The translations under genes were made by a program, and so were the position numbers. A stretch of 64,000 nt of DNA from Romanomermis culicivorax. Its lineage: Eukaryota; Nematoda; Enoplea; Mermithida; Mermithidae. The stretch covers positions 744,001 through 808,000 of the forward strand of contig CAWUHX010000133.1 in the NCBI GenBank assembly GCA_963922205.1, read 5' to 3'. The notes beneath the pieces are model-generated. The model searched no databases. It was not told the origin of the DNA and saw only the letters and a list, made by a program, of their open reading frames with translations. This document shows, one piece after another, positions 28,748-55,378 of this stretch; the first letter of the stretch is position 1; each line of letters opens with the position of its first letter.

Positions 28748-30168
28748 TCAATTATTAAGAATGATGAAAGTTTCTTTTGTGCTGCCAAAAAAGACACATT
28801 CTGGACGCGACCTGGATGCATCCAGGATGCATCTCACATGTGAGGTAGTGGTTTCAGAAGATTTCAGTAAAATGATGATCACAGGGAACCTCTGGGCCAG
28901 ATCTGATGAGATCAGGGTCACCCAGTGTGGCAAAGAGAATTTTACCATGGATTTCTAAAGGGAGAAGTTTGTAGCATATGTTCCTGGCTTGGTAGGAGTG
29001 GTAAATGTGAGTGGCTGTGACCTTTTGGCAGGGCCAGATGGTCAAAGCATTGCCAGTGAATTCAGCAGTGATGTCATCTCATTGGAGGAATGCTCAGGCT
29101 CTGAGGGTGGCATCAAAGCGTAGCAACTGCCAGGTAAGATGAAGGTACTGCTGGGCATGAGAGCAGAGTTCAAGCCAGGTATATCAAAATGCTGTGATTT
29201 CCAATTCCTTGATTTGTTGTGCCAGGTAGTTGAGTTTGGCATTGACTGGGTCAGTTGAATTATGGATTTTGGGGCCAGCGAGGCCGTGTGTGAAGGTGAA
29301 CCATTGAAAGGTATGGGAGATGAAACCCTGATCAGTCCTAACTGTGCCAAGATGGAGGTCAGGACATGGAATTTGATGGCGGAAATTGCAGATGATCTTG
29401 AGGGCTACCTGAAAATCACATGTGTGCCAGAGATAGAGGTAGTGACCCTTTGGGGATTAGGTGACACCTGTTGGAGAAGTTTAATTCTGACCACATGATA
29501 ATGCTGTCTACTGTGGAGCAGGAACCTGTAGTGGGATGGCAGTCACCAACATCACCAATGATGCTAGTGGCTGTGACACCATCCCAGGTGATGATTTGAC
29601 CTTCCGAGATGAAGAGGTTTGTGATGGAGGTACAGTAATCTTTTCAGCACCATTTGTAATTGATGGTCAAGGATTAGTTTGTGGAGTAGAAACCAGGTTG
29701 AATTTAAGTCAAAATGTGTGTGCCATACTGCTTGTCTCTGTATGCATGCAAGCAAGCATGCGGTGTGAAGTGAGCAGATGTAATGACATCAGCAGTAATC
29801 CCTTCGGATCAAAACAAACCTGTGTTTGTGCAGATTTTCTGGGTTCTGAGTATGCATTTCCAGGCAAGACTGATCAGTGCATCAGAAGGAGTGATATAGA
29901 CAGAGATGTTGACTTTTTTCAGGCTCCAGGTTGATTGAGGAAGCTTACAGTCAGTTTTGTGAGGAATATTGAGTGGGTGACCACTGCCTGAAATACCACA
30001 GAGTTGAAAAGACTGTTGAGTATTTATTAGAGATGCCATAAGTGTGATTAAGAGAAGTTTATTTATTGTTGATGAACAATTTGAAAACAATAAACTTTTC
30101 GAATGTAATAACAAAAATAAAAATATCAGGCCAGAGGGTGACTGGCCTGATGGCAGTGGTGGCAGCAT
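28748..30168 (-). pseudogene. Envelope-like glycoprotein remnant of a minus-strand LTR retroelement
   Basis: Several minus-strand frames are collinear with the envelope-like region of the 46389-55126 element. At 30168-29809 a hydrophobic leader is followed by FQLCGISGS, the IPHKTDC cysteine and CILRTQKICTN. At 29045-28854 the segment TIWPCQKV then ICYKLLPLE then ATLGDPDLI matches the plus-strand copy at 50250-50400. Frameshifts and stops break it into at least four pieces, and the transmembrane part is missing at the low-coordinate end. It begins only about 40 bp after the gag remnant, with no pol between them. Confidence 0.75.
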
Positions 30169-30207
30169 CAGCAGTGCCCTATCTGGCTTCCATTTCTGCC
30201 CCTAGTG

Positions 30208-31969
30208 TCAGGGAATGATTGCTACCAACGGCTGGTGGGGTGTAGGGCCCCTCAGTGATGGTGACCAGGCTTGTTTGGATGGTAACAGCCACAATGTAGC
30301 CAGCAGCTGGTGGAGGCCAGCCTTGGGGGGGGGGGTTGGCTGGTGGCCACTGTGTTCCTGTAATGTAGGAATAGAATCAGTAAGGGAGTTGATTCTGTTG
30401 GGCCTGCAATCTGTTTGAAGGTCCTTAGTTGTGTGAGGCTTACCACTGTCCAGCAGCATGAAGTGGTAAACGTGAGGGTCAGCTGTGGGGGTTGCACTGA
30501 CAGGCATCAAGGTCAAGGCCTATCAGGCTGGAAAAGGCAGCAGCAGGGGCTATTCTACAACACAAACAGGGTAAGACAGTGTGTTATGGCCCCCAGATAT
30601 GCAGCTAAGTGTTCATCATCCACATCCAAAGGATTGGGACCTGCGTGAGGAATGGAGGAGTCCACTGCATTAATGTGGTGATGGTAAGGTCAAGATTGAT
30701 TTCCAGAATTTTGAGGAAGAAAAATGACCTGAGGCCTTGCAGGATGGGGTTGAACATATTGGCCGGCTGTCTATTATAAGTGGTATTACCTTTGGCTGGC
30801 AGGTGCAGCATTGGGCAGGCAATGGCCCAATGTTGGCCGCTCACTCCACAATGTGGACATGGCCAATCACATTGTGTGTCAGTGTGGCTGGAGTGGCAGC
30901 CAGATCTGCAGGGGGCTGGCAACAGGGGCTGAGGTTGCAGTGGGGGGCTGGCTGTTGAGAGGTAGGCTGTTGAGAGGTAGGCTGTTGATGACCTGACATT
31001 TGTCCCTATAGTGTTCTCCAAGACTATCGTGAGGACACCACTTCTTGGCCAGGGGGGTGACTGGGCACTGGGAGGATGCTGCTGGGCGCTGAGGGGCAGC
31101 AGCAGGAGCACTGGGGCAAAAGCTGTTGCTCCTTGAGTTGGGTGATGCACACAAGCAGCTAGGTTGTTTGTGCCTGGAGTGAGGCAATGACGGAGTTGTC
31201 ATTGCAGCAGGTGGTGGTGAGCCTGGTGGCGGGGGCTGTGTGGCACAACAGGCAGGCATTCGTGGTTTCGCAGAGAAAACAGCATTAGAGGGTGCTGTGA
31301 GATAGATCTCATCACAAAAAAAGTTGAGATTCTGCATAACAGGCAGCCTTGGTGGCCTATGGGAGGGTGTTGAACTCTCTGAATTTGATACTGTCTCTGA
31401 GGAGAGGCTTAAGGCCTCTCTGGAATATTGGTTTGATTATAGATTCCCTTTTGCTAGCAGTCAGAGAGGGGTAGGCTACTCTAGACATGCCCTTAAGGTG
31501 CTCAAGAAATTCTATTGCAGATTCAAATGGTTTTTGTATCTGCTCAAGAAATTCTATTGCAGATTCAAATGGTTTTTGTATCTGGTTGTGAATGAGCTGA
31601 TGGTGGATGTCTGAGTCCCATTCTTCAAGGAATTCCTCTCTGAGAAATCTGGTATAGTCCTCAAAGTGGGTGAATAGAGGCACCCATTTTTTTTAATTCT
31701 CAGAACAAGGCCAGAGCAGCTTCACTGAGACAAGACTCCAAAAATGTGATTTTGATGTGATGGTCAGTGTCACTGATCCCTTGAAGGATGAGGAACTGAG
31801 TCAGCCTGTCCAAGAAATTGGGAGCAGAGTCTCCAAAAATGCCAGAGAAATTGGGAGAGGGCCTGAGCCCTGCTAACAAAGAAACTGTATAGAATGGTGG
31901 TTTATGTCCTCCAATTTCTGTGTGAGAGGGGTCATGGCCTGAATGAAAGCATCTTGAATGTGGTTTCAA
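30208..31969 (-). pseudogene. Gag remnant of the same minus-strand LTR retroelement
   Basis: Fragments 31969-31700, 31683-31357 and 31150-30605 align in order with the gag of the 46389-55126 element: a capsid-like LLAGLRPSPNFSG segment, FLILQGISDTD, IIKPIFQRGLKP, then a Pro/Gln-rich linker and a CCHC-like CPHCGVSGQHWAIAC knuckle. The capsid part carries an exact 42-bp tandem duplication. Stops and frameshifts are frequent, so the copy is dead. Confidence 0.75.
31501..31584 (-). repeat. Exact 42-bp tandem duplication inside gag
   Basis: 31501-31542 and 31543-31584 are identical. The duplication is in frame, repeating 14 residues (IQKPFESAIEFLEQ/H) of the capsid-like region. The related plus-strand gag has a single copy, so the duplication arose in this copy or its lineage. 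Confidence 0.95.
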
Positions 31970-32374
31970 GAGCCATTTTGACAGTCTTCATTGATAGTTC
32001 TGTGATTTGAGAGAACTCTTCGGAGAGGGGAAGGCTTGTGGACACCAATGGAGTACAGAAAGTTGGAGACTTTGAATTTATGGTGGCTGATTAAAACTCA
32101 GTCGGGAGACTGTGAGTGTGTTTTGGTGATCAGGCAAACGGTTCTTAGAAAAACAGATGTGTTAGTAGACTGCTGTTGTATGGTGCTTGGAGGATGCCTG
32201 TTTGAGAAGAACTAAACAAGTGAGAAAAATGTGTAGACTCACTGGGCATGGCAGGGTAGCTTGTTTTATGGCAGCGGTAGGGCCTAACCTTTGTCCGGCA
32301 GGATGAATTTTAATTATTATTTTTTGTAAACAAAATGCACTGGTGGATTGTTTTGGGGAATTTTAGGGGGGAGC

Positions 32375-36935: not shown

Positions 36936-38484
36936 GATACCATACAGGAGTATTATATATAGCTAAGTGAGGGATGGCTCGATAACTTAGAGGGGCTCCG
37001 AGGGAGCAGAATGATGAAGTACTAGACCCTGAGGCATTGGAGGGGGGACCCTGGAATGGGGTTGACCCTAGAAGGGGGTTGATCCCTATGAAGAGAACCA
37101 GGCAACTTAACTTGTGAATATTCCTAGGCTGACTAGGATTATTACTGCTTGAGTGAGAGGAAATCGAAACACAAGAGGGATCTATACATGTGAAATCATG
37201 GGGAAAATTCACATATTAGACACAGTTAGGAAGCTTGGCTATTGTCCCAGGAACCCCTAAAAGTGAACTGAAGATCACAGTAAGGATAAAGCAAAAATAG
37301 AAAGATCTAAAGAGAAAGAGAACAAGAGTCTCTTGTAACTGAGGGATGCACTTTGGTTAGACGTGGTTCTGAAAAACCAATGTGTAAAAACTACAGTATG
37401 ACAGAAATTCAGCACTGGGGAAGAGTAGAGAAAAAAATTGGAAGAAGAGGGCAGGAGAAACACATGGTTTGGCCGAATGCCGAAGACACAGGTATGAAAA
37501 ACACACTGTATGACATGGGTACAGTACTGGTGAACAGGGAAAAAGAAAATGGGCCGTGCACAGCCATAAAATGTAGTTGAAATGAAATAAAGATTAATTG
37601 TGATTAGGGCTGGAGTAGTGCAAAATCGTCAATTAATGATTGCTCAGCAATTTTGGCCTGTTCTTTGTAAGAAAGTCCAATAGTGACCCAGAAAATCATG
37701 TGGCCCTGTTTACCATAGATGACGGTGTAGGACAAATGAATGTTTTGGGCATGAGCAAAAGGAAACTAAAGAAAGGGAGGAGATGATAAATGGGTAAGGA
37801 AAACATAAAAGTGGAATAGGATGAGAGTAAATAGAAGAAAGAGAGGGGAATTCCTGGAGGGAGAGACTATGGGGAATTTCTGGAGGGAGAGACGGGACTG
37901 AGGACTGAAGGGATAAATCAACACTGGAGTAAGAAGAGGGAGAGAGAGAAGAACAGGAAGAGTGTTGGGGCCCAGTCCCACTTTTCTACTAGCATATGAA
38001 TAAGACTCACCAAAAACAATATTCAAATTAATCTTTTAATAATATAAAACATGGTGGCATAAATATGGGCACTTGGATGATTCTCCATAGTAACCAAATA
38101 TGAGTTTGGTGGAGCAAACTCGGTATTTATGCTAGAGAGAGTAGGAGTGTCAGCAGCTACAGAGCACAGTAGGAGAAAGCAGCTAGCTACAGTAATCATC
38201 GACGCTTCTTTCAGGAGAAGAAAGGGGTCGAGTTGAAGGCCAAAACTAGTTCATGCTGGCCTTTCTTAGTGGAGAAGAGGCCAGTGAGCATACATGCATT
38301 TCTGTGAGAATGCAGGAAGGAGGCCTCTGGAGGGATGCGGACTCTGTTTGCTAGAGTCGTTTTTCGAACACAGAAATAGTTACAAAAACACATGAGCATG
38401 AAAGTGAACACATACAATAATAATTGAGCATTTTGTACGAGATCAAGGTATACTGTAAGATCACATGAGTGGCTGCCCATTACA
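36936..38484 (-). repeat. LTR-like copy 2 of the minus-strand retroelement (truncated)
   Basis: Collinear with copy 1 from agctaagtgagg (36958) to the outer end near ggctgcccattaca (38484), and free of the solo-LTR insertion. It abuts an integrase fragment on its inner side. On the minus strand the order is therefore copy 2, integrase, pol tail, copy 1, gag, env. That fits unequal exchange between elements or tandem insertion followed by an internal deletion. Confidence 0.55.
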
Positions 38485-40090: not shown

Positions 40091-40668
40091 TAAGCTAAAT
40101 TTATTAATGAGATAGAGAAGTAAGGTGAAGTGATTTTTACATACAAAACTGACATATATATATAAAGAAAAAGACATAAAAACTAAGTGATGACGTCATA
40201 GTTTCACATAATGTTAGATCATAATCTTGGTAGGCGTAGTCGGATAAAAATAAAAAGTTTGGTGATGTAAAGCGAAGAATCTTGGCACAATGTCTACAGT
40301 AGGATTGGATAACGTAGGTTTGCCTGGTATGTGTGTGACTGTGAGAGCATCGCCGTTTACTGTAGGTTGCTCAACGGCTATTATTATTGATTGATTTGTA
40401 GCGCTCCCACAGTATTGAATGATATTCGTCTGGCAAATTTCAGAAATAATCCGTTTGTACATATCAGACCCCCACCAGTGTTTTGAGGCACATTTGGTCA
40501 AAATTTTTGGGGCTGGTTAAAAAATTTTGAAACGTTCTTAACCTTACAAGGTGTCAAACCTGAGGATGCAGAAATAAAAAAGACTGCTTTGAATCCTACC
40601 TTTCTGGTCCCGCTTCAGCTGCTTTAGGTGATCTTAAGTTACGGCAGAACAAACCCACTACTCACGAT

Positions 40669-41051
40669 CATACATGCACAGAATAGAAATTCTGCTGGGG
40701 GTCAGCCAGGACTAGGAGTGGAATACAAAATTTTTTTTCGTTCTTGATAATGAGAAAAAGGTCTTAGATAGGTCTTTCAACATCCATGCAGCATATTCAA
40801 CTTATATTAGTCAGATATGTTGAATTATTTGCTTAGACTGCATTTTTATAAAGTTTTAATGTTACCTTTTTTGGAATCAACTATGCTTTGTTTAGAAAAA
40901 TTGTTAAAATACAACATCATTCTCATTTTTATGATGACTTTCTCCTCTCTCTAGCTCATTTCCCTTCGTCATCTTCTCTATCATTGCTGGTGTGGTCAAA
41001 TCTGCTGGGGGTCAAAACTCCCTCAAACCCCCCTCCCCACTTGCATGTATG
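40669..41051. mobile_element. CATACATG-family MITE, 8-bp TSD with one mismatch
   Basis: Begins CATACATGCACAG and ends TTGCATGTATG, with flanks CTCACGAT (40661-40668) and CTTACGAT (41052-41059). It has the family motifs GGGGGTCAGCCAGGA near the left end and TGCTGGGGGTCAAAAC near the right end. Confidence 0.8.
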
Positions 41052-41342
41052 CTTACGATGATTACAAAAACCTATTTCCTACATCATGTACCCAAATAAC
41101 CGTAACAGTGACGTCCATCAACAAATTTTGATGGAAAGAAAGCAAAGAAATTCTGAATTCTGGAGTACTTTTCTGAACTTGGGAAACTGGCCGGTCAAGC
41201 TTTCCCAAATTTATCTCTCGACCACAGGGAAAATATAATAAAACCCATTTTTTGAGAGGCCTCACACCTGAAATCTGTGAAATCCTAAGATATCATTAAT
41301 TTTCAACATCAGATGAAGTTCATAATGCAGTTAACCCTAGAC

Positions 41343-41875
41343 CTATAGTCTGTTTTTTTGAGATGCTTGTAACCGAAAAAAATGAAATAAAGTATACATT
41401 GTTTGTTTAATTACCGCGTGTGCGCACACTATACTGTATTACGGGAAAAAACCCGGCAATTGAAATTTGACGGAATTGAAGGAAAAAAGTTGTGAATGAA
41501 AAAAAAATTCGAAGATGATTCTCATTTAACGAAAAATATGTGGGAGTTGAGATCGTGATACAATGGGTGTGCTTTGGGAAGTTAAAATCTCAAAATTCGG
41601 CGCATCGCGCCTCAGCGCTGGTGATTTGCTGAGCTTTCTCTGCGTAGAGCGAATATTTTTATTCGCGCGAAAGTTTTTTTTTGGCATTTCTCGCACTGGA
41701 CGGCTATTATTTTCAAGAGTTATCGAGTTTAATTAAGAATTTTGTCACGGTTTACCGCCGGCGGTTAATCGATTCCTAACATACAGTCAACAACGATATT
41801 ATCTCGCCACGAAATTCTGCATGGGTACACTTTCAGCATTTTTGCGTTACAAGCATTTAAAAAAACAGACTATAG
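41343..41875. mobile_element. CTATAGTCTGTTTTT-family TIR element
   Basis: CTATAGTCTGTTTTTTTGAGATGCTTG at the left is mirrored by CAAGCATTTAAAAAAACAGACTATAG at the right. A GC hairpin (aattcggcgcatcgcgcc, about 41594) lies inside. The same tips bound 55701-55951. The element ends exactly where retroelement coding sequence begins, so it truncates or interrupts that pol gene. The first 18 codons or so of the open frame at 41821 belong to this element. Confidence 0.7.
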
Positions 41876-43532
41876 TAGCTGTGACTTACTACAATAATAT
41901 TGAACGACCTTTGCAGGAACTTACCATCAGACATCAATCAGGTAAAATAAACAAGAATGCTGATGCGCTATCAAAAAACCTACTACCAACTGTAAACACT
42001 GGACTGTCGGCATTTGCAAAAGAAAAATTTAAAATACCAGCACTTGTTAAAACCAAAAAGTCCTTAAATTGGACTACTAATGTCATCATGGGAAGTTCCA
42101 TTACCACCGAAGTAGATCCAAATTTGGAAAAGGAAGATCCATGTCAGCCACCAGCTGAACAGTTCAAAATCAAGCAAGGAAATGATGAATTTTGTAGTAA
42201 ATTGCTTATGTATTTGTGTCATGGAAAGCTACCCGATGACCCCAAGAAGCCCAAAAAGTTGCTATTTTTGGTCCGCAGTTCACTGAAATAAACCGAGTTT
42301 TCTACTGGTTCCAATAGTGAGATGGATCCAAAATTAGAAGTCCCGCAGGAGATGCAATAAGAGATTTTGGAAGCTTGCCACGATGATCTTTTCGCTGGAC
42401 ATTTTTGATTTTCTAAGACTTTAGCCCGATTACGCTCACATTATCATTGGCTCTCATTGTACAAAGATGCTCGAAAACATTGTTTGAGTTGCGTTAGTTG
42501 TGCTATGAGAAAATGCCCGACTAAGAAAGCTCACGCAGCTATGATTCAATTACCCGTTTCAGGACCTTTTGATCGTGTAGCCATGGATATTTTAGGTCCA
42601 CACTCACTTAGTGAAAAAGGGAATAAATATGTGATAGTTTTCACTGAGTATTTGACTAAATAGGCTTCTGCAGTAGCTATACCTGATGCAACAGCTGAAA
42701 CCGTAGCTCAAGCTTTCATGTCCGAAATTGTTCTCAGATTTGGTACTCCCCTTAGCCTACTTACTGATCGTGGAACTAATTTGTTGTCCCAACTGATGCT
42801 TAAAATTTGCGACCTATGTGGAACTCGGAAAATTAACACTGATCCCTATCATCACCAAACAGATGGCTTAGTTGAAAGATTCAATAAAACCTTGGCCACC
42901 ACTGTTTCCATGTATATAAATAATCGCCACATTGACTGGGACTCATACTTGTTACATGCGCCTGCTTCGCCTATAATACCGTACCCCAAAAATCAAACAA
43001 ATACTCACCATTCTTCTTATTGTACGGTCGTGATCCCAATCTTCCTGTTGACGCAGCTTTGACCTTTTCGCCCAATCGATATCGTGTTGATCTTGACGGC
43101 TATGGCAATCATGTTCAGCATTGGCTAAATTTCGCCTGGGACTCTGCAAAGCAAAATATAGAATCAGCACAAAGAGCCCAAAAATTTGCACATGATAAGA
43201 AAGAACGGGGACAGGAATTGGCAGTAGGCACGCTAGTATTCAAATATAACCCTACAGTACGCCCTAGACACTCCCCGAAATTTACTATCCCGTGGCATGG
43301 ACCCTACATCATCATTGGAGCAAAACATCCCAACTACCAGATAAAATTGGAAGATAAGCCTCTACAGGCGCCAGAGTGGGTACATTTTAATCTGCTAAAG
43401 AAGAAAAATATCTCTGATGAAAAACCCATTGCATTACTTATAAACTCGGTAGAACATCCAGAAATAAGCAACTTTTTGCAACTTGTGCCCCCATGCGCAT
43501 TTTCCGACGACGCCCTGGTATCCTGGCCCTAG
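41876..43532 (+). pseudogene. Ty3/gypsy-type pol fragment: RNase H end and integrase
   Basis: Starts with the end of RNase H (HQSGKINKNADALSKN). The integrase follows: an HHCC zinc finger (H..H near 42380-42400, CLSC..C at 42482-42500), the catalytic core with MDILGP, LLTDRGTN and the Glu in DGLVERFN, then the LLYGRDPNLP segment and a C-terminal domain with the WHGPYII (GPY/F) motif. Breaks seen: stops around 42290-42415, TAG at 42661-42663, and one frameshift near 42960-43020. The frame then stays open to 43530. RT and protease are missing, cut off at the TIR element on the left. A second gypsy lineage: its sequence differs from the 46389-55126 integrase. Confidence 0.82.
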
Positions 43533-44416
43533 ATGCCGAATTTTTGTCCTGGAAAAAACCTTACAATCAGTGGCCCACTGACATTCAAAAATTATTAAGC
43601 GTCCATGAAACTGGAAACCCGAAAAAATGTGGTCCCTTTGCCGCCTGCCTCCAGTTATGCCGATTTGATGGCCATATAGTCGTCTTTGATCTTGTTAGAA
43701 TCTGTTTCATCCCCCCCCCCGAATTACGTGAACTCTTGCTCACGACTACCAGCTTTATAGGATTTGATAACCAGAATAATTGTCGAGCCCTTGCTAACCT
43801 AGACTCTCGCTTAGGCAACATAGACATTCAAGGCGATCCCCAACAAACCTGGTCCGCCTTGTCTCATAAAAAATCTGTAGAATTTTTATGTGAAAAACTT
43901 GCTCCTGAACATCCAAAAGGCACCACCATCCAAGCCTTATCTGGTATTGCACACCCATTCAGTGAAACCACACCCAGCTTGTCAAACCTCACTCAAATTT
44001 TCATTGGACCCACCATAGATAAAACCCTCAGAGGTGCAGGTTTTGATTGGGCCCGACCTAATCTTCCCCAAGATAGTTATACTTACGCAGCTCTTGATGC
44101 ATTAGCCACTTTCGATTTGTACTTGGCCCCGGACCAATTTCATGAATTTTTCATGCGAGCCAGAAGTATTTTATCTAAAGAACGTCATTTTGGTCACGTC
44201 CGAGTCCTAGACCAACTTCTGTGCCCATCCACAGTACCCCCACAAAATGAAAATCAAAATTCCGGTGGGTATTCCTTTTTTCCCAATCTTAGTCCAAGTA
44301 GTGAATCAGCACAAGAATCCCCTGATCCCAGCACTAGCTCCAAATTTACATACCAATCTTCAAAAAAACCCAATGTTGTCACAACCTGTGACCTCATTTC
44401 AGTCCGATTCCGATAG
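43493..44416 (+). CDS. Retroelement ORF3: DEDDy-type 3'-5' exonuclease domain protein
   Basis: The ATG at 43493 overlaps the last 40 bp of the integrase frame (-1 relative). The first 210 residues form a DnaQ/RNase D-like fold: Exo I LALDAEF (D14, E16), Exo II FIGFDNQNN (D92), and Exo III YAALDALATFDLY (Y198, D202). The Y-x3-D spacing defines the DEDDy subclass, and all five catalytic residues are present. Such enzymes trim RNA or single-stranded DNA 3' ends. A Ser/Pro/Gln-rich tail follows, and this frame ends at 44416, but coding potential continues in other frames to 45294. The position after integrase and before the polypurine tract and LTR makes it part of the retroelement. From memory, DEDDy ORF3s have been described in bdelloid rotifer LTR elements. 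Confidence 0.82.
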   Translation: MRIFRRRPGILALDAEFLSWKKPYNQWPTDIQKLLSVHETGNPKKCGPFAACLQLCRFDGHIVVFDLVRICFIPPPELRELLLTTTSFIGFDNQNNCRALANLDSRLGNIDIQGDPQQTWSALSHKKSVEFLCEKLAPEHPKGTTIQALSGIAHPFSETTPSLSNLTQIFIGPTIDKTLRGAGFDWARPNLPQDSYTYAALDALATFDLYLAPDQFHEFFMRARSILSKERHFGHVRVLDQLLCPSTVPPQNENQNSGGYSFFPNLSPSSESAQESPDPSTSSKFTYQSSKKPNVVTTCDLISVRFR

Positions 44417-45507: not shown

Positions 45508-46385
45508 AGGAGAGGAAGGTGTAAGATTTCAAGACAACCAGCACACCCACTTTCCTAATTTGAGAAACCCTGTTTATTTCGACTATTAAATGAAATGTTT
45601 TCTACCCATTTCTTTTTCCTACTGTATTCCCTATCTATGAAATTTATCTAAACTTTAAATGAGACAAGTCATGGCCACATAAAAAACATTTTACTTTCTT
45701 CTTTTGATCTTTATCTTGCCGAAATTGTCGTCAATCGCTGGATTCGAACCGATCGCCCACCATTGCTTGCCAAAATGCCTGAAGAAAAACCCTAAAAGAA
45801 AGATTATGAAATATCTTATATTTACGTCATATCATCATACTTCTTACTCGTCTTTTGGTATAAATACTCGTCATCTTTTTATATTTTTTTGATCCCTTCC
45901 ATACGCATATAAAACTTAGCCGTGAATTGGGTCGAAAGTCGTCTCCTCGTATTTTGATCGATATACTATTTTATCTCCTGTTGGAATTAGATTCCTGAGA
46001 TCCCTCCCAAGTTGAAATTAATCCATTCTAAGTTTGACCTTATTGTTCTTTCATTTGCCCACTTACTTGACTCTCTCTCTCCTTTATTGACGCCATTCAG
46101 TTTGGTCTTTGATTGTTTCTTGCATTCCGTGGCTGGAAGAAGCAAAAACATACAGTAAACCTCACCATCGGAAGTTCATGCTACAGTAACTCCAACCAAC
46201 CTCATAACCCATAAATATACCAAGTCTTACATCTTTTCGTTAATATTTTCACTTTTCGGGTTTTTTATCAGTATTACAATATTTGTTCTGCGTCATATGG
46301 TTTTCGTCATTTTTACGCCTTTTTTTCTGACAAACTTTTCACGTTATTGTAATCTACATCATCGATTCACCAAAAAACTCGATTT
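45508..46385 (+). repeat. Polypurine tract and probable 3' LTR of the exonuclease-bearing element
   Basis: AAGGAGAGGAAGG (45508-45520) is a good polypurine tract followed at once by TGTAAGATTTCAAG, the expected LTR start. The LTR would run right to an unknown end before the next element begins at 46389. No matching 5' LTR was recognised in the window, so the right boundary is only an upper limit. No further gene is seen in this stretch. Confidence 0.5.
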
Positions 46386-46388
46386 TGC

Positions 46389-46911
46389 TGTGATGAAGAG
46401 CAACCACTTCACAGAAACGAAATTGCATCATGTTTTTTATGCTGTTTTTTATTGAGAAACAAAATATTATTTTGAGCAACCACGTTTGCATTTTAATTTA
46501 TTATGATTGTTGTTGGAGATACCACCAAGCCTGTCCGGAAAATTCTGGTCAAGTTCATATTGACCATTCTAATCAAAAATAAACTACAGCTAGCCTCGGC
46601 CAGCAATCCACAGTAAGGAATCACAAGAAACTTTTAGCTTTTTTTTAACTTTTTTTTTTTAGTTAGCGACTAGAGTAAACTTTCATGAAACTGATAAACA
46701 GAACCTCGTGAGTAATCTAGGCCATAAGAATGATAAGATAAGATCTGATAAGAAACTATAAGAAGAAAATATTTTTAGATATATTATTATTATTCTTTTT
46801 CTTATTCTGATGATTTTTATTTTTGGGATTATTCTGTGATGATTTGTGAATGTTGGAGAATAAATGAAATATCGTATTCTGTCAAGGAAAGATTAGAAGC
46901 GCTCCTTAACA
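46389..46911 (+). repeat. 5' LTR (523 bp)
   Basis: Begins TGTGATGAAGAG and ends CTCCTTAACA. It matches the 3' LTR over its length. Differences include a poly-T tract (about 46632-46660) where the 3' copy has gctagcctcgg, and an extra segment (aagaatgataagataag, near 46727) absent from the 3' copy. Both copies carry an AATAAATGAAAT context near the end (about 46859) that could serve as a polyadenylation signal. Confidence 0.9.
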
Positions 46912-46931
46912 TTTGGTGAGGCTACTGGATC
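46912..46931 (+). promoter_or_regulatory. Predicted primer binding site of the 46389-55126 element
   Basis: The bases directly after the 5' LTR read TTTGGTGAGGCTACTGGATC. A TGG two bases after the LTR is the usual PBS start. I cannot assign the priming tRNA by eye. Confidence 0.5.
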
Positions 46932-47327
46932 TTGCTTGTGTTATCTCCGAAAGAATCGCCGAGGAGTACTACTTAGTTGGATTTTTTCTGAAGCAGCTTT
47001 TGAGCACAGCATTTAAGCACAGCCGAGGCCCAGGTAAGTGTCGATTTTTTTTCCACTCTGCCCTTGAGCACAGCCTTTAAACAGCACAGCTCAAAGCATT
47101 TGTTTTATTTTGCAAATCCTATTATTTCATAGGATTCACTATACTTTTTCTGTCATTCTACAACACAATAAGTAATTTCACGTGTGCCACTGGCAGAAAG
47201 TGCACCCAGTATACTTATATAGGTAGAATTAACAAATACACCAAACGCGCAAATTTCTTTTGCTCAAATTTGCATAAAGCCGAGCTACCTTTGCACATTA
47301 GCACTATAGCTTCGCACACTGGATCCT

Positions 47328-49184
47328 ATGCCAAAGAGGAATCAAGTTCGTCGAAAATTATCCTTGAGTGATCAGTTTCAGCAAATCGTTCACCAAGCAC
47401 AGCAATCAGTTTTAGGTCATCAATCTAACACCACTATGCCCAATATGAGCGATCGTTCAGCAAGTGAACAAGCTGCACTTGAAGACATCGTTAAAACACA
47501 ATTGGCACAATGCTTATGCCCCTACAGCAGAGACTCATTTTGCTTACAAAGAGAATCGCAGATAACCACACAATTAGAAGACAACAATCAACGATTCAAT
47601 GATATTAATGATCGACTGCAAAATCTAAACCTCAATAATGCTACAGATGAGATTCGCAGAGCAAGCTTGCATTTTAATCCGCTTTTAGGAATACGACCAC
47701 CTTCTCTGTTCTCAGGTTCTTTGGGTGAGAATCTATTTGAATGGTTTAACAAATTCGAAAAATTCATGACATTGCAAGGTATTCCTGATACTGATGAATC
47801 ATACAGGATCACCTACTTGTAAAATTATTTGACTAGAGAAGCCCTGGTATCGTTCAACCAAATTAAGTTGCGTAATATTCTGTCTACAACCTATGTGGAG
47901 TTTAAAAATGAGTTGCTTCTTTTATACCCTGTAGGTAGAGACAGTGACCTGCTACAGCAGAGAATTCAAGACGGAAAACAAAAATACAAAGAATCTGTTT
48001 TGGAATTCAGTGAAGAACTTAAGAAACTAGCTAATGCTGCATACCCTGATGCTACTCAAGCAGTCAAACTATCCGTGATTAAACCTATTTTCCTAAGAGG
48101 TCTTGAACCCAGAATCAAGCGTGTTATCGAGTTTACTAAGTTTCAAAATCTGACAGATGCAATAGAGGCAGATCATTATGTTGAAATGCAGCTTGCCAGA
48201 AAAGAACTCAGTTCAGACATACAATCTGAATCCACCTCAGCTAATCTTGTTCATTCTCTAGATTCTCAAAAAATTAGTAAAATCGAAAACGATATCAAAA
48301 AAATCCGATGCTCAATTGTTACAAATAAAGGCATGCAGAATTCATTATTATATCGTCAAAGGATGCCCACTCAACAATACGAGAATCGTCCGAAATGCGA
48401 AATTTGTGGGCAAACAAATCACGGCACTCAGCAGTGCAAAAGCCCGTGCCAGCATTGCAGATGGACGGGCCATCGAACCAACGCCTGCAGAATGTCCAGG
48501 CCTCGAGGTAATCTCACTTTAAATTCCTGTAGGAATAATCAACTCAATTCTTCAAGAGATACAGATTTTCAGAATCAGATGTCATCTGGTAATTCTTGGA
48601 GAAATAGAAATCAAAACAAGCATGGAAACAACTATTCTAACAATTTTATTCATGAGTCTTTTGAAAATCAGAACTCGATCAATGCACTCGACCTTGATGA
48701 TGAAAACGCTTTTAGTCCTAATTCTCATTTTCAAGCAAATTATGTCATAAACACCAACTGGGAATCTCCAGTAAAGACTGTGTATTCTTCGCATACAAAT
48801 TTGTTATGCACTTGTGCATACTGCTCAGGACACGGGGACATGTTTAGATACAACTATTCATATGTCAACAGCCAAGAGAACCAAATGGACGTCAATCATA
48901 GGCAAGAACCACCTCGAAATTTGGAGGTCGTCATCAAGCAAAAATCAGTCGATTCACTGACAGAAGCCCTGAAAAGCTTGGAAGTCGACTCCGAAGGATC
49001 GGCTGATGGAGAAGCAAAGTCCGCACTCAAGAAACACTTGATGGCTATTAAATCAGCCATGGAAAAATTGAGTATTCAAGGTGAAGCTTCTAAATTGATT
49101 CAGAAAGCTAAACATTCATTTTGCTCAATTTTTCAGAATCAGAATCCTAAGGATCGATTCTCCCAAAATAATATTCAAAAGTGA
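47328..49184 (+). pseudogene. Gag polyprotein with two CCHC zinc knuckles, one in-frame stop
   Basis: The ATG at 47328 starts a basic N-terminus (MPKRNQVRRK). A capsid-like region contains LLGIRPPSLFSG, WFNKFEKFM and VIKPIFLRGLEPR. Two knuckles of exact C-x2-C-x4-H-x4-C spacing (CEICGQTNHGTQQC and CQHCRWTGHRTNAC, about 48396-48490) bind nucleic acid. An acidic/helical tail (SLTEALKSLEVDSEG) ends at TGA 49182-49184. The only lesion is an in-frame TAA at 47820-47822; both halves are in one frame. The total of about 618 residues is long for gypsy gag. The next frame (envelope-like) is in the same reading frame just beyond the TGA. Confidence 0.88.
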
Positions 49185-50631
49185 AGCAAAAATATTTTGA
49201 TTTACCCAGAAGCCTTGATTCTTATATTTATGTATTCACTTTTTATATTTTGCATTCCGATAAATGCATATTCTATGAATAAATTTCACATATGTGGAGC
49301 TGCAAAATCTGATCATGCTTTGTCTATTCCTCAAAATATAACATGTCAAGCACCTTCTAGACTCATTAATCCATACCTCATGAATATTTCACTTTTTGTG
49401 CTCAGGAGTGAACCTTTATTCATCAAAGCATATAAGTGTAGCCTCAGAACCCGAACAGTCTGCACAAATATGAATTTTTTCGGATCTAAAGGCATCGTTG
49501 CTGACAAAGTAAACATTATTCATGTGTCACTGAGAGCATACAGAGATACAATAATCACTAGAGAATATGCAGGTATCAAGCTAACACAAATTTAAAAGGT
49601 CTTTATTCCACGAATCACACACTGCATGTTGAATACAAGTGGTGTTATACTGACTTATGCAAATCCATAGAAAACTTTATACTAAAAGAAGGACAAATTG
49701 CTTCTTTTGATTGAAATCTTGTCACCAGTGACCTTGGTGATCTGGGTGGATGCAGTGCTTCTGCAGGCCAGTGTTTGAACGAAAGTACTATTCTTTGGAA
49801 TTCTACTATTTTCTCTCACTTTTGCCCATACGTCTATAAGAATCTATAGGCTGCAAAACAATCTGGACCATATGTTATAATTCACGAAATTCAGGGTGCT
49901 TTTGTAGTCAAGTCAAAGTATACTTGATGTCCTGAATACCAAGATCTTTTATACACTCAGCAGGGTGTCATTCTGCAAATTCATGGGTCTCATAATACCA
50001 ATCTGTCTAATTCATTTGTTCCCAATTCACAAAATGATCCAGTGAATTCTAAACTGAATTATCTTTAATACAAAATTGTTCGTAGTGAAATTGAAAATTT
50101 TTGGTACATCTGGTTAAGTTATGCAATCATGCCCAGAGATACCTAGACTTAATCTGGCAACTACTTCTCTTCCATCCTACAATAGGAGCTAGAGCATTCA
50201 TGCAAAGAAACAATATAACTGCTGACTTCACGGGAGATGTTCTAACTGTGTGGCCATGCAAGTCAGTTATTCCTGTCAAAACCTACTATGACTATAAAGT
50301 AGGACAAACATGCTATAAGTTCTTGCCAGTTCAACTTGAAAAGACACTCATGTTTGCCGCCCCTGGTGGTACCGATCTAGTCGACAGTAGTCCAATCGTT
50401 GACTGCAATCATCATGCAATCAGAATTTTCAAAAAGAATCAAACATGGATGACAAATTCTGGTCCAACCCATGTAAGTAATATTCCCCTTGAACTTATGT
50501 TGAGAGGGGAACATGAACTTTTCCAATTTAATTCTCCTTCTGTATTCCACTATCAACTTGCTCAAGCACCTACAAACTATGCATTCCTAGACAATACATA
50601 TTCAAAATGCATAGAATTGAAAGTATTCTAA
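49185..50631 (+). pseudogene. Envelope-like glycoprotein, ectodomain part, broken
   Basis: An open frame continues in the gag frame directly after the gag TGA. A hydrophobic stretch with an internal ATG (about 49230, MYSLFIFCIPINAYS) is a plausible signal peptide. The ectodomain that follows has paired cysteines and N-glycosylation sequons (PQNITC, LMNISL; later NHT, NES and NST in broken frames between 49600 and 49830). After a damaged 500-bp stretch with several stops, frame 50101-50631 resumes with DVLTVWPCKSV, GQTCYKFLP, APGGTDLV and PIVDCNHH. A homologous set is on the minus strand at 28748-30168. No similarity to a named viral glycoprotein family is obvious to me, so the call is by topology. 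Confidence 0.7.
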
Positions 50632-51395
50632 ATAATGTGGTCAATTATACATCTGGCTTGTCCCTACAGCCGAAAGAAATCTATGAAATTTTGTCTGTTG
50701 CTGGTGTAGGAGTAGGACGAGCAGCAAAAGGAGTCGGGAATGCGTTTGAGCATGTAATCAATAAGGAATCTGAACTTATATCAGCTTTTGGTAACCTAGT
50801 GAAAGCTCCAATTCAACTATTAATTAATTTGTGGATCATTCTTCTGATCTGTGCAGCCATTGCTTATTTCTGTTATCTTTTTCTTGTTTATGGTTATAAA
50901 AAGCGAAATCGAACCAAACCCATAGAGGAGCCCGAAAGAACAACATTTTCTCAAGCATTATTACGACTAGCAAAAATCAAATCCAATAGTGACAGAAAAA
51001 ATCAAAACAAAAGGTCGACTGTTAGATTCAACAAAGCAACGAATATGGTTGACCTAGACCCTGATATGAATCTATCGTCAAATTCAATAAAAAGAACCCC
51101 TCATATTGATTTCATGGTAAATGGCACTGTCACTGTGAATGCATTGATCGACAGTGGAGCTGTCTATTCCCTACTTGATGCTGATGTAGCAGTAAGAGTT
51201 CCTGACCTTTGTATTCATCCCACAAATGCTAGACCCATAGCTGCAAACTGTGAACCTATCCAAATTCTTGGATGTGCTTATATTACTGTGTCTGCATATG
51301 ATGTGAAAGAGACTATTCGAGTGCAAATTCAGAGAAATTGTGCTGCAAGACCTTGTTTTAGAAACAAATTTCATGAATCGTTTCAGAAACATTGA
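50607..51395 (+). CDS. Envelope membrane-proximal region and transmembrane helix fused to retroviral-type aspartic protease
   Basis: One uninterrupted frame of 262 codons overlaps the previous frame by 25 bp (-1 relative). It starts with an amphipathic helix (IESILNNVVNY), then a Gly-rich GVGVGRAAKGVG segment, a strongly hydrophobic helix (about residues 70-95, WIILLICAAIAYFCYLFLV) and a basic stop-transfer GYKKRNR. A Lys/Arg-rich cytoplasmic linker of about 65 residues leads to a pepsin-like protease: HIDFMVNG strand and catalytic LIDSGA (about residues 185-190). The protease's last part continues in another frame from 51340 (LETNFMNRF.N). Thus the protease is in cis with a type I membrane anchor. 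The frame is intact over the junction, so this is not an annotation artefact of joining broken pieces. Confidence 0.78.
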   Translation: MHRIESILNNVVNYTSGLSLQPKEIYEILSVAGVGVGRAAKGVGNAFEHVINKESELISAFGNLVKAPIQLLINLWIILLICAAIAYFCYLFLVYGYKKRNRTKPIEEPERTTFSQALLRLAKIKSNSDRKNQNKRSTVRFNKATNMVDLDPDMNLSSNSIKRTPHIDFMVNGTVTVNALIDSGAVYSLLDADVAVRVPDLCIHPTNARPIAANCEPIQILGCAYITVSAYDVKETIRVQIQRNCAARPCFRNKFHESFQKH

Positions 51396-53275
51396 ATTCA
51401 ACTGGGAGAAATCTTATATTATATTCAAGGCACATAATGTACCATGTGAAGGTATGCACTTCAATCCTCCTAAAAACCGAGGAGCGATTCTATTAGATTC
51501 ATTGACCATTTTAGAGCCAAGAATGATTCATCTTATCTATGCTCCAGTTTCAGCTTTATACACAGAATCTTCAGATGATGTGAGATTCAAACCAAAATTT
51601 CTGGGAAATAATGTTTACTTTGCATCGTCAATCAGCAAACTCCACAATAAAAAGATTCCAATCCAAATCCTGAATCTCAATAATAATGCTGTTAATCTTT
51701 ATCCAGGTATGTGGATCAGCGAAATCAAAATTCACAAAAGTCCTGTGGGAATAAATATGATAAACCAATTGGTGAGTAAACAATTTGAAGATTCAGTCAC
51801 TCGGGAATAGATTTTAGCCAAGGTCCATATTTCAGAAAGCCTTACAAACACAGAAAAAACAAACTTAATTAACTTGCTTTTGAAATTTCCTAATTATGCA
51901 AAATCAGAGAAAGATACTGGACGAACTCAACTAGTTAAACATCACATCAATACAGGAGATTCAAAACCTATTAGATCATATCCATTTCGAACTTTTCCTA
52001 GAGAAAAGCAAATCATAATGAAGGATGTTCAAGCCCTAGAAGCCGAAAATGTCATTCAAAAGAGTGTGAGTCCATACTCAACAAATTCAGTAATAGTCAA
52101 AAAGAAAGATGGCAATTTTCAGTTATGCATCGATTTTGGAGCCTTAAACAATGTCACAAAGAAGGACGTTTATCCATTATCGAAAAATTGATGATATTCT
52201 TGATATGTTGAAAGGCATGCAATACTTCACTACTCTGGATCAAGCGAATTCGTATTGGAGTATTCCTATTGTAGAGAGAGACAGAGAAAAAAAACCGCAT
52301 TCATGACTCCAACTGGTTTGTATGAATTCAATTATTTTCCATTCGGTCTATGCAATGCCCCAGCCACATTCCAGAGACTCATGGATATTCTTTTCTCAGG
52401 TCTAGAATGGTCTTCATGTTTAATCTACTTTGGATGATATTCTTGTATTCGGGAAAAGTCATGATGAAATGCTAGACAGACTTGAATCCGTTTTATGTCG
52501 TCTCCAAAAAGGAGGAATGAAATTGAGGCTTAATAAATGCAAATTCAGTTTTCCAGAAGTCAAATATTTAGGGTACAAAATATCCGCTGGAGGCATCGAG
52601 CCTGATTCTAAAAAGCTGCAAGCAATCGTAGATATGCAACCACCAAAGAATCAGAAGGAATTAGAATCATTCCTTGGCTTGGAGTCATATTATCGGAAAT
52701 TCATTAAAAATTGTGCACAACTTTGTTATCCACTGACAAAATTACTCAAAAAAGAAACAAAATTCATCTGGGACAGCATTCAACAAGAAACTTTTGACAT
52801 TCTGAAACACAAACTAGTTAATCCACCGATTTTAAGCCATCCTGATTTCAGAAAACCATTCATTCTTCAAACTGATGCATCGGGTGATGGCATTGGAGCC
52901 GTTTTCAGCCAAATTCATGAGGATGGGAAGGAACATCCCATTGCTTTTGCAAGCAGAACCTTGAAGCCAGCGGAAAGAAACTATAATATTATGGAACAAG
53001 AAACTCTTGCAGTTGTTGAATTCGTGAAATACTTCAGACCTTATTTATTCCAACATGAAGTCCTTGCTCAAACAGATCACACAGCTGTTAAAAGTGTCCT
53101 CCAAAGATTAAATCCATCTGGTAGGATAGCTTGTTGGGGTTTAGCCCTGTCAGATTTTAAACTATCGATTCAACCTAGCAAGGGTTCCAACAATAAAAAT
53201 GCTGATGCTCTGTCGAGACTCCCAAAACATGGATGGAATTCCTACTTTCAACATCAAAGACGTCACATTTGCTAG
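51340..53275 (+). pseudogene. Pol: protease C-terminus, reverse transcriptase and RNase H, several frame breaks
   Basis: Order: protease flap/C-terminus and linker (51340-51807), TAG at 51808-51810 in frame, RT fingers (51874-52190; VSPYSTNSVIVKKKDG, LCIDFGALN), RT palm (52255-52437; YFPFGLCNAPATFQR), RT thumb/connection (52430-), then RNase H (TDASGDGIGA, MEQETLAV, TDHTAVK, NADALSRLP; D, E, D, D all present) to 53275. Breaks: a stop, shifts near 52180 and 52285, and a one-base insertion exactly at the catalytic YxDD loop near 52432. The copy cannot make active RT as it stands. The domain set is typical of Ty3/gypsy. Confidence 0.88.
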
Positions 53276-53299
53276 ACCAGAAGGAGAGATAAATGTCAT

Positions 53300-54610
53300 T
53301 AATCATGATGGCCCTAACCTACAAAAACTGCAATGAGAAGATGTCAATCTTTTCCTGATCATAAACCTTCTAGAAACCCAAAGAACAGTAGAATTTAAAG
53401 CTTATACCCTGAAAAACAAAATTCTTCATAGAAAAGTAGAAGGGAACTACAAAATTGTTATTCCAAACATTCTCAAAAAACTCATAATCAAATCTCATCA
53501 TGATGACATGCTTATCGGCCACTTTGGAGCTCAGAAGACTATTCAACTTATATTAAAGTCATACTTTTGGAATTCATTACGAAAAGACGCTGAAGCATAC
53601 TTGTAGGACATGCATACTCTGTCAAGTGAACAAGCCTATGCGACACAAAATCAAAGCATGCTTAAAACCCATTGAAATCACAGGTCCATTTGATCACGTT
53701 GGTGTAGACTGTGTAACCCCGGACAGAAACAGGAAATCGATTTATTGTAGTATTCATAGACTATTTCACTAAATACATTGAAGCATTCCCAACTCAAGAC
53801 ATAACCTCAGGGACCATAGGGAACCCGTTTGTTACTCAAATTGTATGTCGACATGGTGCACCTGAAATTCTCTAGTCAGATCAAGGCACTGACTTTACAT
53901 CAAATCTGATGCAAGAAATCACGAAGCTTTTTGATACAAAGAAAATCCATACGTCTGCCTATCATCCAATGGCAAACGGAGAAGTCAAAAGAGCAAACCA
54001 AACACTAATCATCAGAATACGAATGTATATAAGTGAAAATCAATCTGATTGGGATCAGCACTTGCCGTATGCTATTTTTGCAACTAATATTCATTCTAAT
54101 TCAACAACAGGATATTCACCCTTCGAACTTATGTATGGGAGGAATACAAAACTACCTATTCATTCGGCCCTAAACTTCAATCCAAACCTACAGTACATCG
54201 ACATTCAGGATTACCAGACGCAAGTGAAGAATCATTTTACTCAGGCGTTGAATCACATCAAGTCGAAAGTTGAAGAATCACAGAAGAAGTACAAGGAAAT
54301 GTATGATCACAGCCAGAAAAACGTCAGTTACAAGTTAGGGGACCTCGTTCTAAAAGAATCAGAAATCGTGAAGAAAGGAAGAATCAAGAAGCTGCAGTCA
54401 ATTTTCGAGGGACCATTTAAAATCCTGGATGTCACCTATCCAAACATCAGGATCGAGAAAAAACGAATGCGCAATGGGATTGAGACGATACATGTCAATC
54501 ATTCTAAGCCATTTTATAAACGCGCTGATCAAGAACACTGGATGCCGGACCCGAACATTGACGAAGAAGGATCGGACGGGGATTTAATTCCCATCCGAAG
54601 TTCAGTCTGA
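53300..54610 (+). pseudogene. Pol: integrase, N-terminal half broken, C-terminal half open
   Basis: The zinc-binding region (HHDDMLIGHFG, then a damaged CxxC) and the first half of the catalytic core (53500-53905) carry stops and shifts. From 53909 a clean frame encodes KKIHTSAYHPMANGEVKRANQTL, containing the catalytic Glu, the SPFELMYGRNTKLP segment, a coiled linker, then a C-terminal domain (LGDLVLKE, FEGPFKILD, the GPY/F-type motif) and an acidic tail ending at 54608-54610. It stops 15 bp before the 3' LTR, so nothing follows pol in this element. Confidence 0.85.
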
Positions 54611-54625
54611 AATATAGGACGGCCA

Positions 54626-55126
54626 TGCGACGAAGAGCAACCACTTCACGGAAACGAAATTCCGTCATGTTTTTTATGCTGTTTGTTTATTGAGAAACAA
54701 AATATTATTTCGAGCAACCACGTTTGCATATTAATTTATTATGATTGTTGTTGGAGAAACCACCAAGCCTGTCTGGAAAATTCTGATCATGTTCATATCG
54801 ACCACTCTAATCAAAACTAAACTACAGCTAGCCTCGGCCAGCAATCCACAGTAAGGAAGCACGAGAAACTTTTAGCTAGCCTCGGTTAGCGACTAGAGTA
54901 AACTTTCATGAAACTGATAAACAGAACCTCGTGAGTAATCTAGGCCAAACCTGATAAGAAACTATAAGAAGAAAATATTTTTAGATATATTATTATTATT
55001 ATTATTATTATTATTCTTATTCTGATGATTTTTATTTTCAGGATTATTCTGTGGTGATTTGTGAACGTTGGAGAATAAATGAAATGTCGTATTCCGTTAA
55101 GGAAAGGTTGGAAGCGCTCCTTAACA
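54626..55126 (+). repeat. 3' LTR (501 bp)
   Basis: Begins TGCGACGAAGAG and ends CTCCTTAACA, collinear with 46389-46911. It has an ATT trinucleotide expansion (about 54990-55013) compared with the 5' copy. The sequence just upstream (aatataggacggcca) is only weakly purine-rich, so no clear polypurine tract is visible. Confidence 0.9.
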
Positions 55127-55378
55127 TTGCCATGATTCGTAAAAAATTTAAATTTTGGGAGCTTTTTTTAATAAACATTCTAATTTTTTAGCAAGATAAA
55201 CAACGTCAAAAGGATAAGGATAAAGATAAAGATGAAGGTAAACCTTTTGAAAACAAAATGATAAAGATGAAAATAAATATAAGGATGAGAAAATACATAA
55301 GATATGTTTATCTTTATGTTTATCTTGCAAAGAAGCTACAAAGATATATATTTCTGAGCACTAACCACCAGTCACACG

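What the first reader, a model, noticed from the sequence alone, without database searches (positions are those of the whole stretch)
49185..51395. Envelope-like glycoprotein placed between gag and pol, with its transmembrane end in one ORF with the protease
In the full-length LTR element 46389-55126 the order is gag, env-like, protease-RT-RNase H-integrase. A single intact 262-codon frame (50607-51395) holds a Gly-rich membrane-proximal segment, a hydrophobic helix, a basic stop-transfer signal and then the LIDSGA aspartic protease. In retroviruses, errantiviruses and BEL/Pao elements with env, the env gene lies downstream of pol. Here Pol would be made as the cytoplasmic extension of a type I membrane protein, which would offer a different way to bring Pol to budding sites. 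That functional reading is inference; the layout is visible.
Basis: partly seen in the sequence, partly recalled or inferred. Interest (0 to 1): 0.9.

Follow-up and report, generated by a model that had tools for sequence, protein, structure and literature searches.

The report
Retroelement with glycoprotein between Gag and Pol
In this animal genome, probably a worm's, virus-like jumping genes carry their cell-entry glycoprotein in the middle of one giant protein, between the capsid and the replication enzymes, instead of as a separate gene at the end as retroviruses do.

Summary
Element 46389-55126 has LTRs (86% alike), a 4-bp TSD (TTGC) and the order gag, env, protease, RT, RNase H, integrase. 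The env part is a real glycoprotein: 50101-50628 matches Pfam PF24664 (chuvirus-type class III fusion glycoprotein), E 7.6e-13. This copy is old and broken, but the layout is no accident. The host genome (359 Mb, probably a nematode) has at least 68 PF24664 places, 14 in open frames of 1,963-2,578 codons. I fetched the middle of 17 of the 68: 17 have Gag zinc knuckles upstream, 16 have PR/RT downstream, and in 7 (plus one found by RT) Gag, Env, membrane anchor, protease and RT lie in ONE uninterrupted frame. Six families under 70% alike share the layout; Env and RT trees agree in outline; window-versus-relative pieces show purifying selection across the Env-protease join. Database proteins show Gag-Env, Env-PR and (hookworm) Env-PR-RT-RH-IN fusions. 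Most likely a Gag-Env-Pol polyprotein threads through the ER membrane, in flavivirus-like order. My searches found no report of this, but one key paper was not readable. Translation and cleavage are inferred.

The parts
46389..46911 (+). 5' LTR (TGTGATG...TTAACA)
   Evidence: 86% identical to 54626-55128 over 535 aligned bases (families D1-D5); ends read
46385..46388 (.). TSD TTGC, 5' copy
   Evidence: sequence
46914..46931 (+). probable primer binding site (TGGTGAGGC...), primer tRNA not identified
   Evidence: sequence after the LTR; inference
47310..47819 (+). gag, first part (open frame), ends at an in-frame stop
   Evidence: N-terminal part matches the start of L060's open frame, 52%
47823..49181 (+). 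gag, second part, with zinc-knuckle motifs
   Evidence: 35% to L060 Gag, E 3e-69
49182..49184 (+). in-frame TGA between gag and env in this copy only; L048 and L060 read through here in one frame
49185..49592 (+). env, N-terminal part (same frame as gag); internal signal-like hydrophobic stretch at about 49212-49268, then the ectodomain start
   Evidence: 47-48% to L048/L060 env N part
49593..50094 (+). env middle, broken into several frames
50095..50628 (+). env, fusion-domain part: class III (Monjiviricetes/chuvirus type)
   Evidence: PF24664 E 7.6e-13 for 50101-50628; 68% to L060
50532..51392 (+). open frame joining the env membrane-proximal part, TM, basic tail and aspartic protease; ATG-to-stop ORF is 50607-51395
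   Evidence: 51% to L060 over the same join
50817..50891 (+). transmembrane segment of Env, followed by KKR
   Evidence: sequence; homologous hydrophobic segment in L048/L060, mean hydropathy 3.12
51144..51161 (+). protease active-site motif LIDSGA
   Evidence: sequence; PF13650 E 0.009, below the Pfam cut-off, in this copy; relatives score above or near cut-off
51307..52434 (+). end of protease, linker and reverse transcriptase, in broken frames
   Evidence: 54-79% to L060 piece by piece
52424..53272 (+). end of RT plus RNase H
   Evidence: RT_RNaseH_2 E 4.1e-36, RVT_1 E 6.7e-8
53337..54607 (+). integrase, in broken frames (open frames 53337-53603, 53557-53769, 53876-54607)
   Evidence: 53909-54607 matches the integrase region of relatives
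54626..55126 (+). 3' LTR
55127..55130 (.). TSD TTGC, 3' copy
   Evidence: sequence
28857..31987 (-). second, more decayed copy of the same kind of element: gag (31876-31321, knuckles 30895-30749) then env (30150-28857); no pol was recognised downstream of it
   Evidence: PF24664 E 6.4e-4, below cut-off, on 28857-29078

Best explanation
This is a decayed copy of an LTR retroelement of the Ty3/gypsy type that carries a chuvirus-like (class III) envelope glycoprotein inside a single Gag-Env-Pol open reading frame. In intact relatives one frame reads Gag (zinc knuckles), internal signal sequence, about 520-540 aa ectodomain, transmembrane anchor, basic tail, aspartic protease, RT, RNase H, integrase. 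Most likely working: the full-length RNA is translated into one polyprotein. Gag emerges in the cytosol; the internal signal opens the ER translocon; the ectodomain goes into the lumen; the anchor stops transfer and Pol is made in the cytosol. Signal peptidase would free Gag from Env, and the element's protease would free Pol and mature Gag at the membrane during assembly. This puts Gag, Env and Pol at one membrane site in equal amounts, the order used by flaviviruses (capsid, glycoproteins, protease, polymerase). Shown: the order, the single frame, the homologies, the two hydrophobic segments, the constraint. Inferred: translation as one protein, topology, cleavages, budding, infectivity.
For: Env homology: PF24664 E 7.6e-13 in the window, 4.4e-15 to 4.2e-20 in five relatives (L012, L060, L052, L051, L057); the env profile's only PDB matches at E <= 1 are three herpesvirus gB entries, best 0.0033. 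Order and frame: 68 PF24664 places scored in the genome, 14 in open frames of 1,963-2,578 codons; of 17 middles fetched, 17 with Gag knuckles upstream, 16 with PR/RT downstream, 14 with tblastn-level Gag similarity, 7 with everything from knuckle to RT in one frame (L048, L052-L056, L060), plus L012. Longest open frame by chance in 500 resamples of L052: 248 codons against 1,760. In L012 and in L052-L056 the only strong hydrophobic segments are the two that bracket Env; L048 and L060 likewise in their long frame. No start codon is conserved before the signal: nearest in-frame ATG 75, 36, 4 and 86 codons upstream in families A, B, C, D; none before an upstream stop in the E and F copies looked at. 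Purifying selection, window pieces against L060: Ka/Ks 0.14 env N, 0.17 TM-tail, 0.22 PR, 0.13 RT-RNase H (Ks saturated). Env and RT trees both join the window to L048/L060 and both set families C and D apart. Other sources: P0121 Gag+Env, P0122 Env+PR, P0123 (Ancylostoma duodenale) Env-TM-PR-RT-RH-IN. Recent activity: L052-L056 99.3-99.8% alike; C72 LTRs 396/396 identical.
Against: No RNA or protein data. Three fetched copies and the window have a single in-frame stop near the gag-env border (L045, L047, L051), at different distances from the signal, so decay is likelier than programmed read-through, but read-through is not excluded. A nematode-type splice acceptor (TTTTCAG) lies 154-253 nt before the first ectodomain Cys in families A, window, B (8 of 9 loci) and F, but not in C, D or E, so a spliced Env-Pol mRNA is possible. 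Family B, the one with five intact near-identical copies, has DCGA where D[ST]GA is usual, so its protease activity is uncertain, although PF13975 scores 29.0 against a cut-off of 28.2. The C72 frame ends inside integrase. No structure model could be made. Env relatives were not found in IMG/VR or GTDB contigs.
Confidence: 0.8

Rival explanations
1. Same genome order, but several mRNAs: full-length RNA gives Gag-Env-Pol (or Gag), and a spliced or trans-spliced RNA entering just before the signal sequence gives Env-Pol with a start codon from the leader exon.
For: TTTTCAG lies 154-253 nt before the first ectodomain Cys in families A, window, B (8 of 9 loci) and F. Retroviruses make Env from a spliced mRNA, and Cer1 makes CERV from one (PMC10309623, passages).
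Against: Absent in families C, D, E; TTTTCAG also occurs elsewhere in the same loci; chosen after looking. No conserved ATG near Env. It would still give Env-Pol fusions, so it changes amounts, not the architecture.
Confidence: 0.3
2. Env is an in-frame retained intron: splicing it out yields Gag-Pol, keeping it yields the membrane-anchored form.
For: The gag, env and pol parts share one frame, so removal of a multiple of three would keep Pol readable.
Against: No in-frame pair of good donor and acceptor was found around Env in any of 6 copies scanned (general consensus only, so weak).
Confidence: 0.07
3. Chance: a glycoprotein fossil (an endogenous chuvirus piece) inserted into one retroelement copy.
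For: The window copy alone is broken in all genes, and chuvirus glycoprotein fossils are common in arthropod genomes (PMC10084718, passages).
Against: Same order in 17 of 17 fetched places for Gag and 16 of 17 for PR/RT, six families, intact frames, selection, and fusions in other sources.
Confidence: 0.01
4. The internal glycoprotein is kept for a job other than cell entry, for example as a membrane anchor that assembles particles inside the cell.
For: No infectivity evidence exists; a membrane anchor alone could be useful for assembly (inference).
Against: The ectodomain keeps 16 Cys in each of 4 families counted and 4-8 N-glycosylation sequons, and constraint in the env N part (Ka/Ks 0.14) is like that of RT-RNase H (0.13).
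Confidence: 0.15

Closest known systems
Anakin (BEL/Pao elements of mosquitoes with a chuvirus glycoprotein, PMC7642597)
   Same: An LTR retroelement carrying a chuvirus-type glycoprotein (passages).
   Different: Pao, not Ty3/gypsy-type, pol; described as elements of canonical Pao structure plus a glycoprotein. The passages I saw put env downstream of the polyprotein for Roo, Tas and Cer-7; I did not see Anakin's own gene order stated.
Errantiviruses and other envelope-carrying gypsy elements (PMC13172572 passages; Chary and Hayashi 2025 eLife, not held, known only from that citation)
   Same: Ty3/gypsy-type pol with env; some are said to have type III fusion glycoproteins (PMC13172572).
   Different: [quoted passage not shown] Here env is internal and fused on both sides. 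Whether the eLife paper includes this layout I could not check.
Cer1 of Caenorhabditis (PMC10309623)
   Same: Nematode Gypsy-type element with one very long polyprotein and no stop between gag and pol (passages).
   Different: Its extra part (CERV C-terminal region) lies after pol, residues about 1871-2272 of the polyprotein, and CERV is a nuclear RNA-export protein, not a class III glycoprotein.
Jingchuvirales (chuvirus) glycoprotein and other class III fusion proteins
   Same: PF24664 above the curated cut-off; weak matches to herpesvirus gB.
   Different: There a separate gene of a negative-strand RNA virus (recalled); here fused to Gag and Pol.
Flavivirus polyprotein (recalled)
   Same: Works alike by layout: capsid, internal signal, glycoprotein, anchor, then protease and polymerase in one frame.
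   Different: No relationship: the replication genes here are LTR-retroelement genes with LTRs and integrase.
Troyka (PMC12440569)
   Same: LTR superfamily with a single Gag-Pol ORF in most members.
   Different: CG...CG termini, 3-bp TSDs and no envelope in any member (passages).

Membership tests
Ty3/gypsy-type LTR retroelement (Metaviridae) | LTRs with short TSD | tested here: met
   Window LTRs 86%, TSD TTGC; C72 relative LTRs 396/396, TSD GTAG read
Ty3/gypsy-type LTR retroelement (Metaviridae) | domain order PR-RT-RNase H-integrase | tested here: met
   Pfam and tblastn on relatives and the window
Ty3/gypsy-type LTR retroelement (Metaviridae) | RT groups with Ty3/gypsy reference elements in a tree | not tested
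   No named reference set was at hand; Pfam profiles (RT_RNaseH_2, Integrase_H2C2) fit by name only
Errantivirus / retrovirus-like gene order | env downstream of pol as a separate ORF | tested here: not met
   Env upstream of RT in 16 of 17 fetched env places (the 17th has no recognised RT) and 7 of 7 RT-found elements
Class III (Monjiviricetes/chuvirus) fusion glycoprotein | profile match above curated cut-off | tested here: met
   PF24664 47.7 bits in the window, 55.1-71.7 in five relatives, cut-off 27
Class III (Monjiviricetes/chuvirus) fusion glycoprotein | class III fold | not testable with these tools
Class III (Monjiviricetes/chuvirus) fusion glycoprotein | signal sequence, ectodomain, single C-terminal anchor | tested here: met
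   Two hydrophobic segments bracketing about 520-540 aa; simple hydropathy, no trained topology predictor
Troyka superfamily | CG...CG termini, 3-bp TSD | tested here: not met
   TG...CA termini and 4-bp TSD in the window

The most novel reading that the evidence does not exclude
A lineage of envelope-bearing, possibly infectious Ty3/gypsy-type elements, in this genome and at least one hookworm, uses a third expression plan for retroelements: one Gag-Env-Pol polyprotein, made through the ER membrane and cut by signal peptidase and its own protease, giving Gag, Env and Pol in equal amounts at one membrane, convergent with flaviviruses.
Probability: 0.6. Interest if true: 0.93.

Novelty: new variant of a known kind. 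Interest (0 to 1): 0.86.

Why it matters
Retroviruses and the envelope-bearing retroelements I read about place env after pol and express it apart, which is taken as the way to control amounts and to keep Gag and Pol off the secretory pathway. A successful lineage that fuses all three breaks that rule. It makes open questions testable: how an element assembles when Gag, Env and Pol arrive in equal amounts, whether a retroelement capsid can form from a membrane-tethered precursor, and how genes for glycoproteins are captured (into the middle of a frame, not only at the end). It also means that screens that look for env downstream of pol will miss such elements.

Tried and rejected
Chance insertion into one copy: rejected (17 of 17 and 16 of 17). 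Env as an in-frame intron: six copies scanned, no in-frame donor-acceptor pair, with a general consensus, so weak. Subgenomic Env-Pol mRNA: TTTTCAG near the signal in four groups and absent in three; left open. Programmed read-through at the gag-env stop: the stops differ in place among the copies that have one; thought to be decay. Long LTR-type frames L009-L011 and L013-L018 (among the RT hits of 2,011-2,340 codons, though L018 is broken): no env match, no zinc-knuckle or D[ST]GA motif; set aside. Troyka, errantivirus, Anakin and Cer1 membership: see the tests. Host: SL1 search found nothing, but no control genome rang either and only 50 of 149,498 candidates were scored; TTAGGC arrays are abundant. 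The window's protease ORF found no relative among 682 candidates in the protein collection. Searches of viral contigs with RT, env and the env profile and of GTDB contigs with the env profile gave nothing. NCBIfam gave only two irrelevant weak hits. A genome-wide count with the window's own RT did not complete, so whether close relatives without env exist is unknown. Literature: searches for 'between gag and pol' with envelope (15 papers, listing only apart from PMC10309623), chuvirus plus env, errantivirus plus Metazoa, (0 papers; 0 papers) gave no report of this layout; Chary and Hayashi 2025 could not be read.

Full report
Observation. LTRs 46389-46911 and 54626-55126 are 86% alike over 535 aligned bases, with TSD TTGC (read). 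Open frames run gag (47310-47819, 47823-49181), env N part (49185-49592), env C part (50095-50628), anchor plus protease (50532-51392), then RT, RNase H and integrase in broken frames. The copy is old: every gene is interrupted. A TGA at 49182 parts gag from env, which otherwise share a frame.

What the middle part is. Piece 50101-50628 matches PF24664, the Monjiviricetes fusion glycoprotein, at E 7.6e-13, above the curated cut-off. In relatives the match is 4.4e-15 (L012) and 1.3e-19 to 4.2e-20 (L060, L052, L051, L057), with weak matches to herpesvirus gB and bornavirus G, as expected of class III relatives (that expectation is recalled). A profile of nine env parts finds only herpesvirus gB among solved structures at E <= 1, best 0.0033.

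Other copies in the same genome. The window lies in an unnamed 359-Mb assembly of 595 contigs. A PF24664 search scored 68 places, a lower bound, 14 of them in open frames of 1,963-2,578 codons. All 17 have CCHC zinc-knuckle motifs upstream on the same strand. In 14 of 17 gag is also recognised by tblastn, and in 16 of 17 PR/RT is recognised downstream; L049 is the exception. In 7 of 17 (L048, L052-L056, L060) one frame holds knuckles, signal, env, anchor, protease region and RT. Seven elements found by RT instead (C72, three on C293, C198, C38, C405) all have env upstream of RT and integrase downstream. C72 is in one frame from Gag to within integrase: 1,499 codons of it lie in L012, 2,199 in all. 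Its LTRs are identical over 396 bases.

Families. Nucleotide comparison gives groups A (L048, L060), B (L046, L047, L049, L052-L056, L059), C (L051, L058), D (L012, L021, L028, L030), E (L045, L050, L057, L029) and F (L044). The highest identity listed between groups is 68.9%, and the window is 66-67% like A. So this is not one young family but an old layout. Five B copies are 99.3-99.8% alike with the fetched 1,760 codons fully open. Trees of the env core and of RT-RNase H both join the window with L048/L060, both unite B, E and F, and both leave C and D outside that set; deeper forks are unresolved, and metagenome RT relatives (P0001-P0004) nest among the families in the RT tree. This fits one capture before the families split.

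Anatomy of the join. In L012 the Gag end is basic and leads straight into a 19-residue hydrophobic core, then the ectodomain. The second hydrophobic segment comes after the ectodomain and is followed by a Cys/basic tail and the protease motif LIDTGA; these are the only two strong segments in 1,499 residues. The same pair occurs in L048, L052-L056 and L060. Each of four ectodomains counted has 16 cysteines and 4-8 sequons. No start codon is conserved before the signal, as expected if Env is made by cleavage and not by its own initiation. Between the window and L060, amino-acid changes are strongly under-represented in env N (Ka/Ks 0.14), the anchor-tail region (0.17), PR (0.22) and RT-RNase H (0.13). 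Ks is saturated, so only the contrast counts; two of eight pieces (env2, rt1) gave no ratio for that reason. The Env-protease join is thus kept by selection, not by chance. L048 against L060 differ too little to tell (ratios 0.11-0.54).

Outside this genome. In a collection of 5.8 billion proteins the env part finds three at E <= 0.001: P0121 (1,056 aa, Retrotrans_gag plus PF24664, with signal and anchor), P0122 (652 aa, PF24664, anchor, RVP) and P0123 (1,805 aa, Ancylostoma duodenale, env parts, anchor, PR, RT, RNase H, integrase). Each shows part of the same order; none spans it all.

Mechanism. Shown: the order, one frame, the glycoprotein's identity, two hydrophobic segments, constraint, recent copies. 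Inferred: the polyprotein is inserted into the ER through its internal signal, Gag is freed by signal peptidase, and Pol is freed by the viral protease on the cytosolic side. This would supply Gag, Env and Pol in equal amounts. The main rival keeps the architecture and adds a spliced Env-Pol message: TTTTCAG lies 154-253 nt before the first ectodomain Cys in A, window, B (8 of 9 loci) and F, but not in C, D or E. A caveat on the protease: family B has DCGA in place of D[ST]GA in each copy looked at, though the domain is recognised.

Known or new. In the passages I read, env lies downstream of the polyprotein in Roo, Tas and Cer-7 (PMC7642597), envelope-carrying gypsy elements are described as tandem GAG, POL and ENV (PMC13172572), Troyka has no env (PMC12440569), and Cer1's extra part follows pol (PMC10309623). 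PMC10084718 reports chuvirus-type glycoprotein fossils in nematodes flanked by simple repeats, and finds no clear capture by Gypsy elements. My searches for this gene order found nothing. Chary and Hayashi 2025 (eLife) was not held. I therefore call it a new variant of a known kind: an envelope-bearing LTR retroelement with a new genome plan.

Host. TTAGGC arrays are abundant (12,618 forward and 13,644 reverse matches to TTAGGS repeats; nearly all of the places listed read TTAGGC), which is the nematode telomere unit (recalled). With the hookworm match this makes a nematode likely. The SL1 search was empty but uninformative.

Noticed in passing
window 40418-44416 (+): Remains of another Ty3/gypsy-type element (gag and integrase pieces) followed by an ORF (43493-44416) with a weak 3'-5' exonuclease match (PF01612, E 0.0011, below cut-off), like the DEDDy exonuclease ORF3 reported for bdelloid LTR elements (PMC5408684, passages).
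   Followed up: partly
G000:C293:386000-412500 (L021-L027) and G000:C180:404-17640: Three gag-env-pol elements in a row with near-constant spacing (7457/7453 on C293, 8365/8365 on C180): tandem arrays sharing LTRs, or an assembly effect.
   Followed up: no
L052-L056, L046, L047, L059, about 3250-3270 in element orientation: Family B protease motif reads DCGA where D[ST]GA is usual, in each of the copies looked at (5 by motif scan, 5 by reading), although the frame is intact in five.
   Followed up: partly
L009-L011, L013-L017: Other very long LTR-type polyprotein frames (part of the 2,011-2,340-codon frames) with a YIDD RT and no zinc knuckle, no D[ST]GA motif and no env match; what fills about 1,300-1,500 codons before RT is unknown.
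   Followed up: no
whole genome G000: TTAGGC arrays are very common and interstitial.
   Followed up: no
window 35675-36887 (-): Integrase piece of a related element (42% to this element's integrase) between two blocks of a long direct repeat (36945-38477 and 33068-35594).
   Followed up: no
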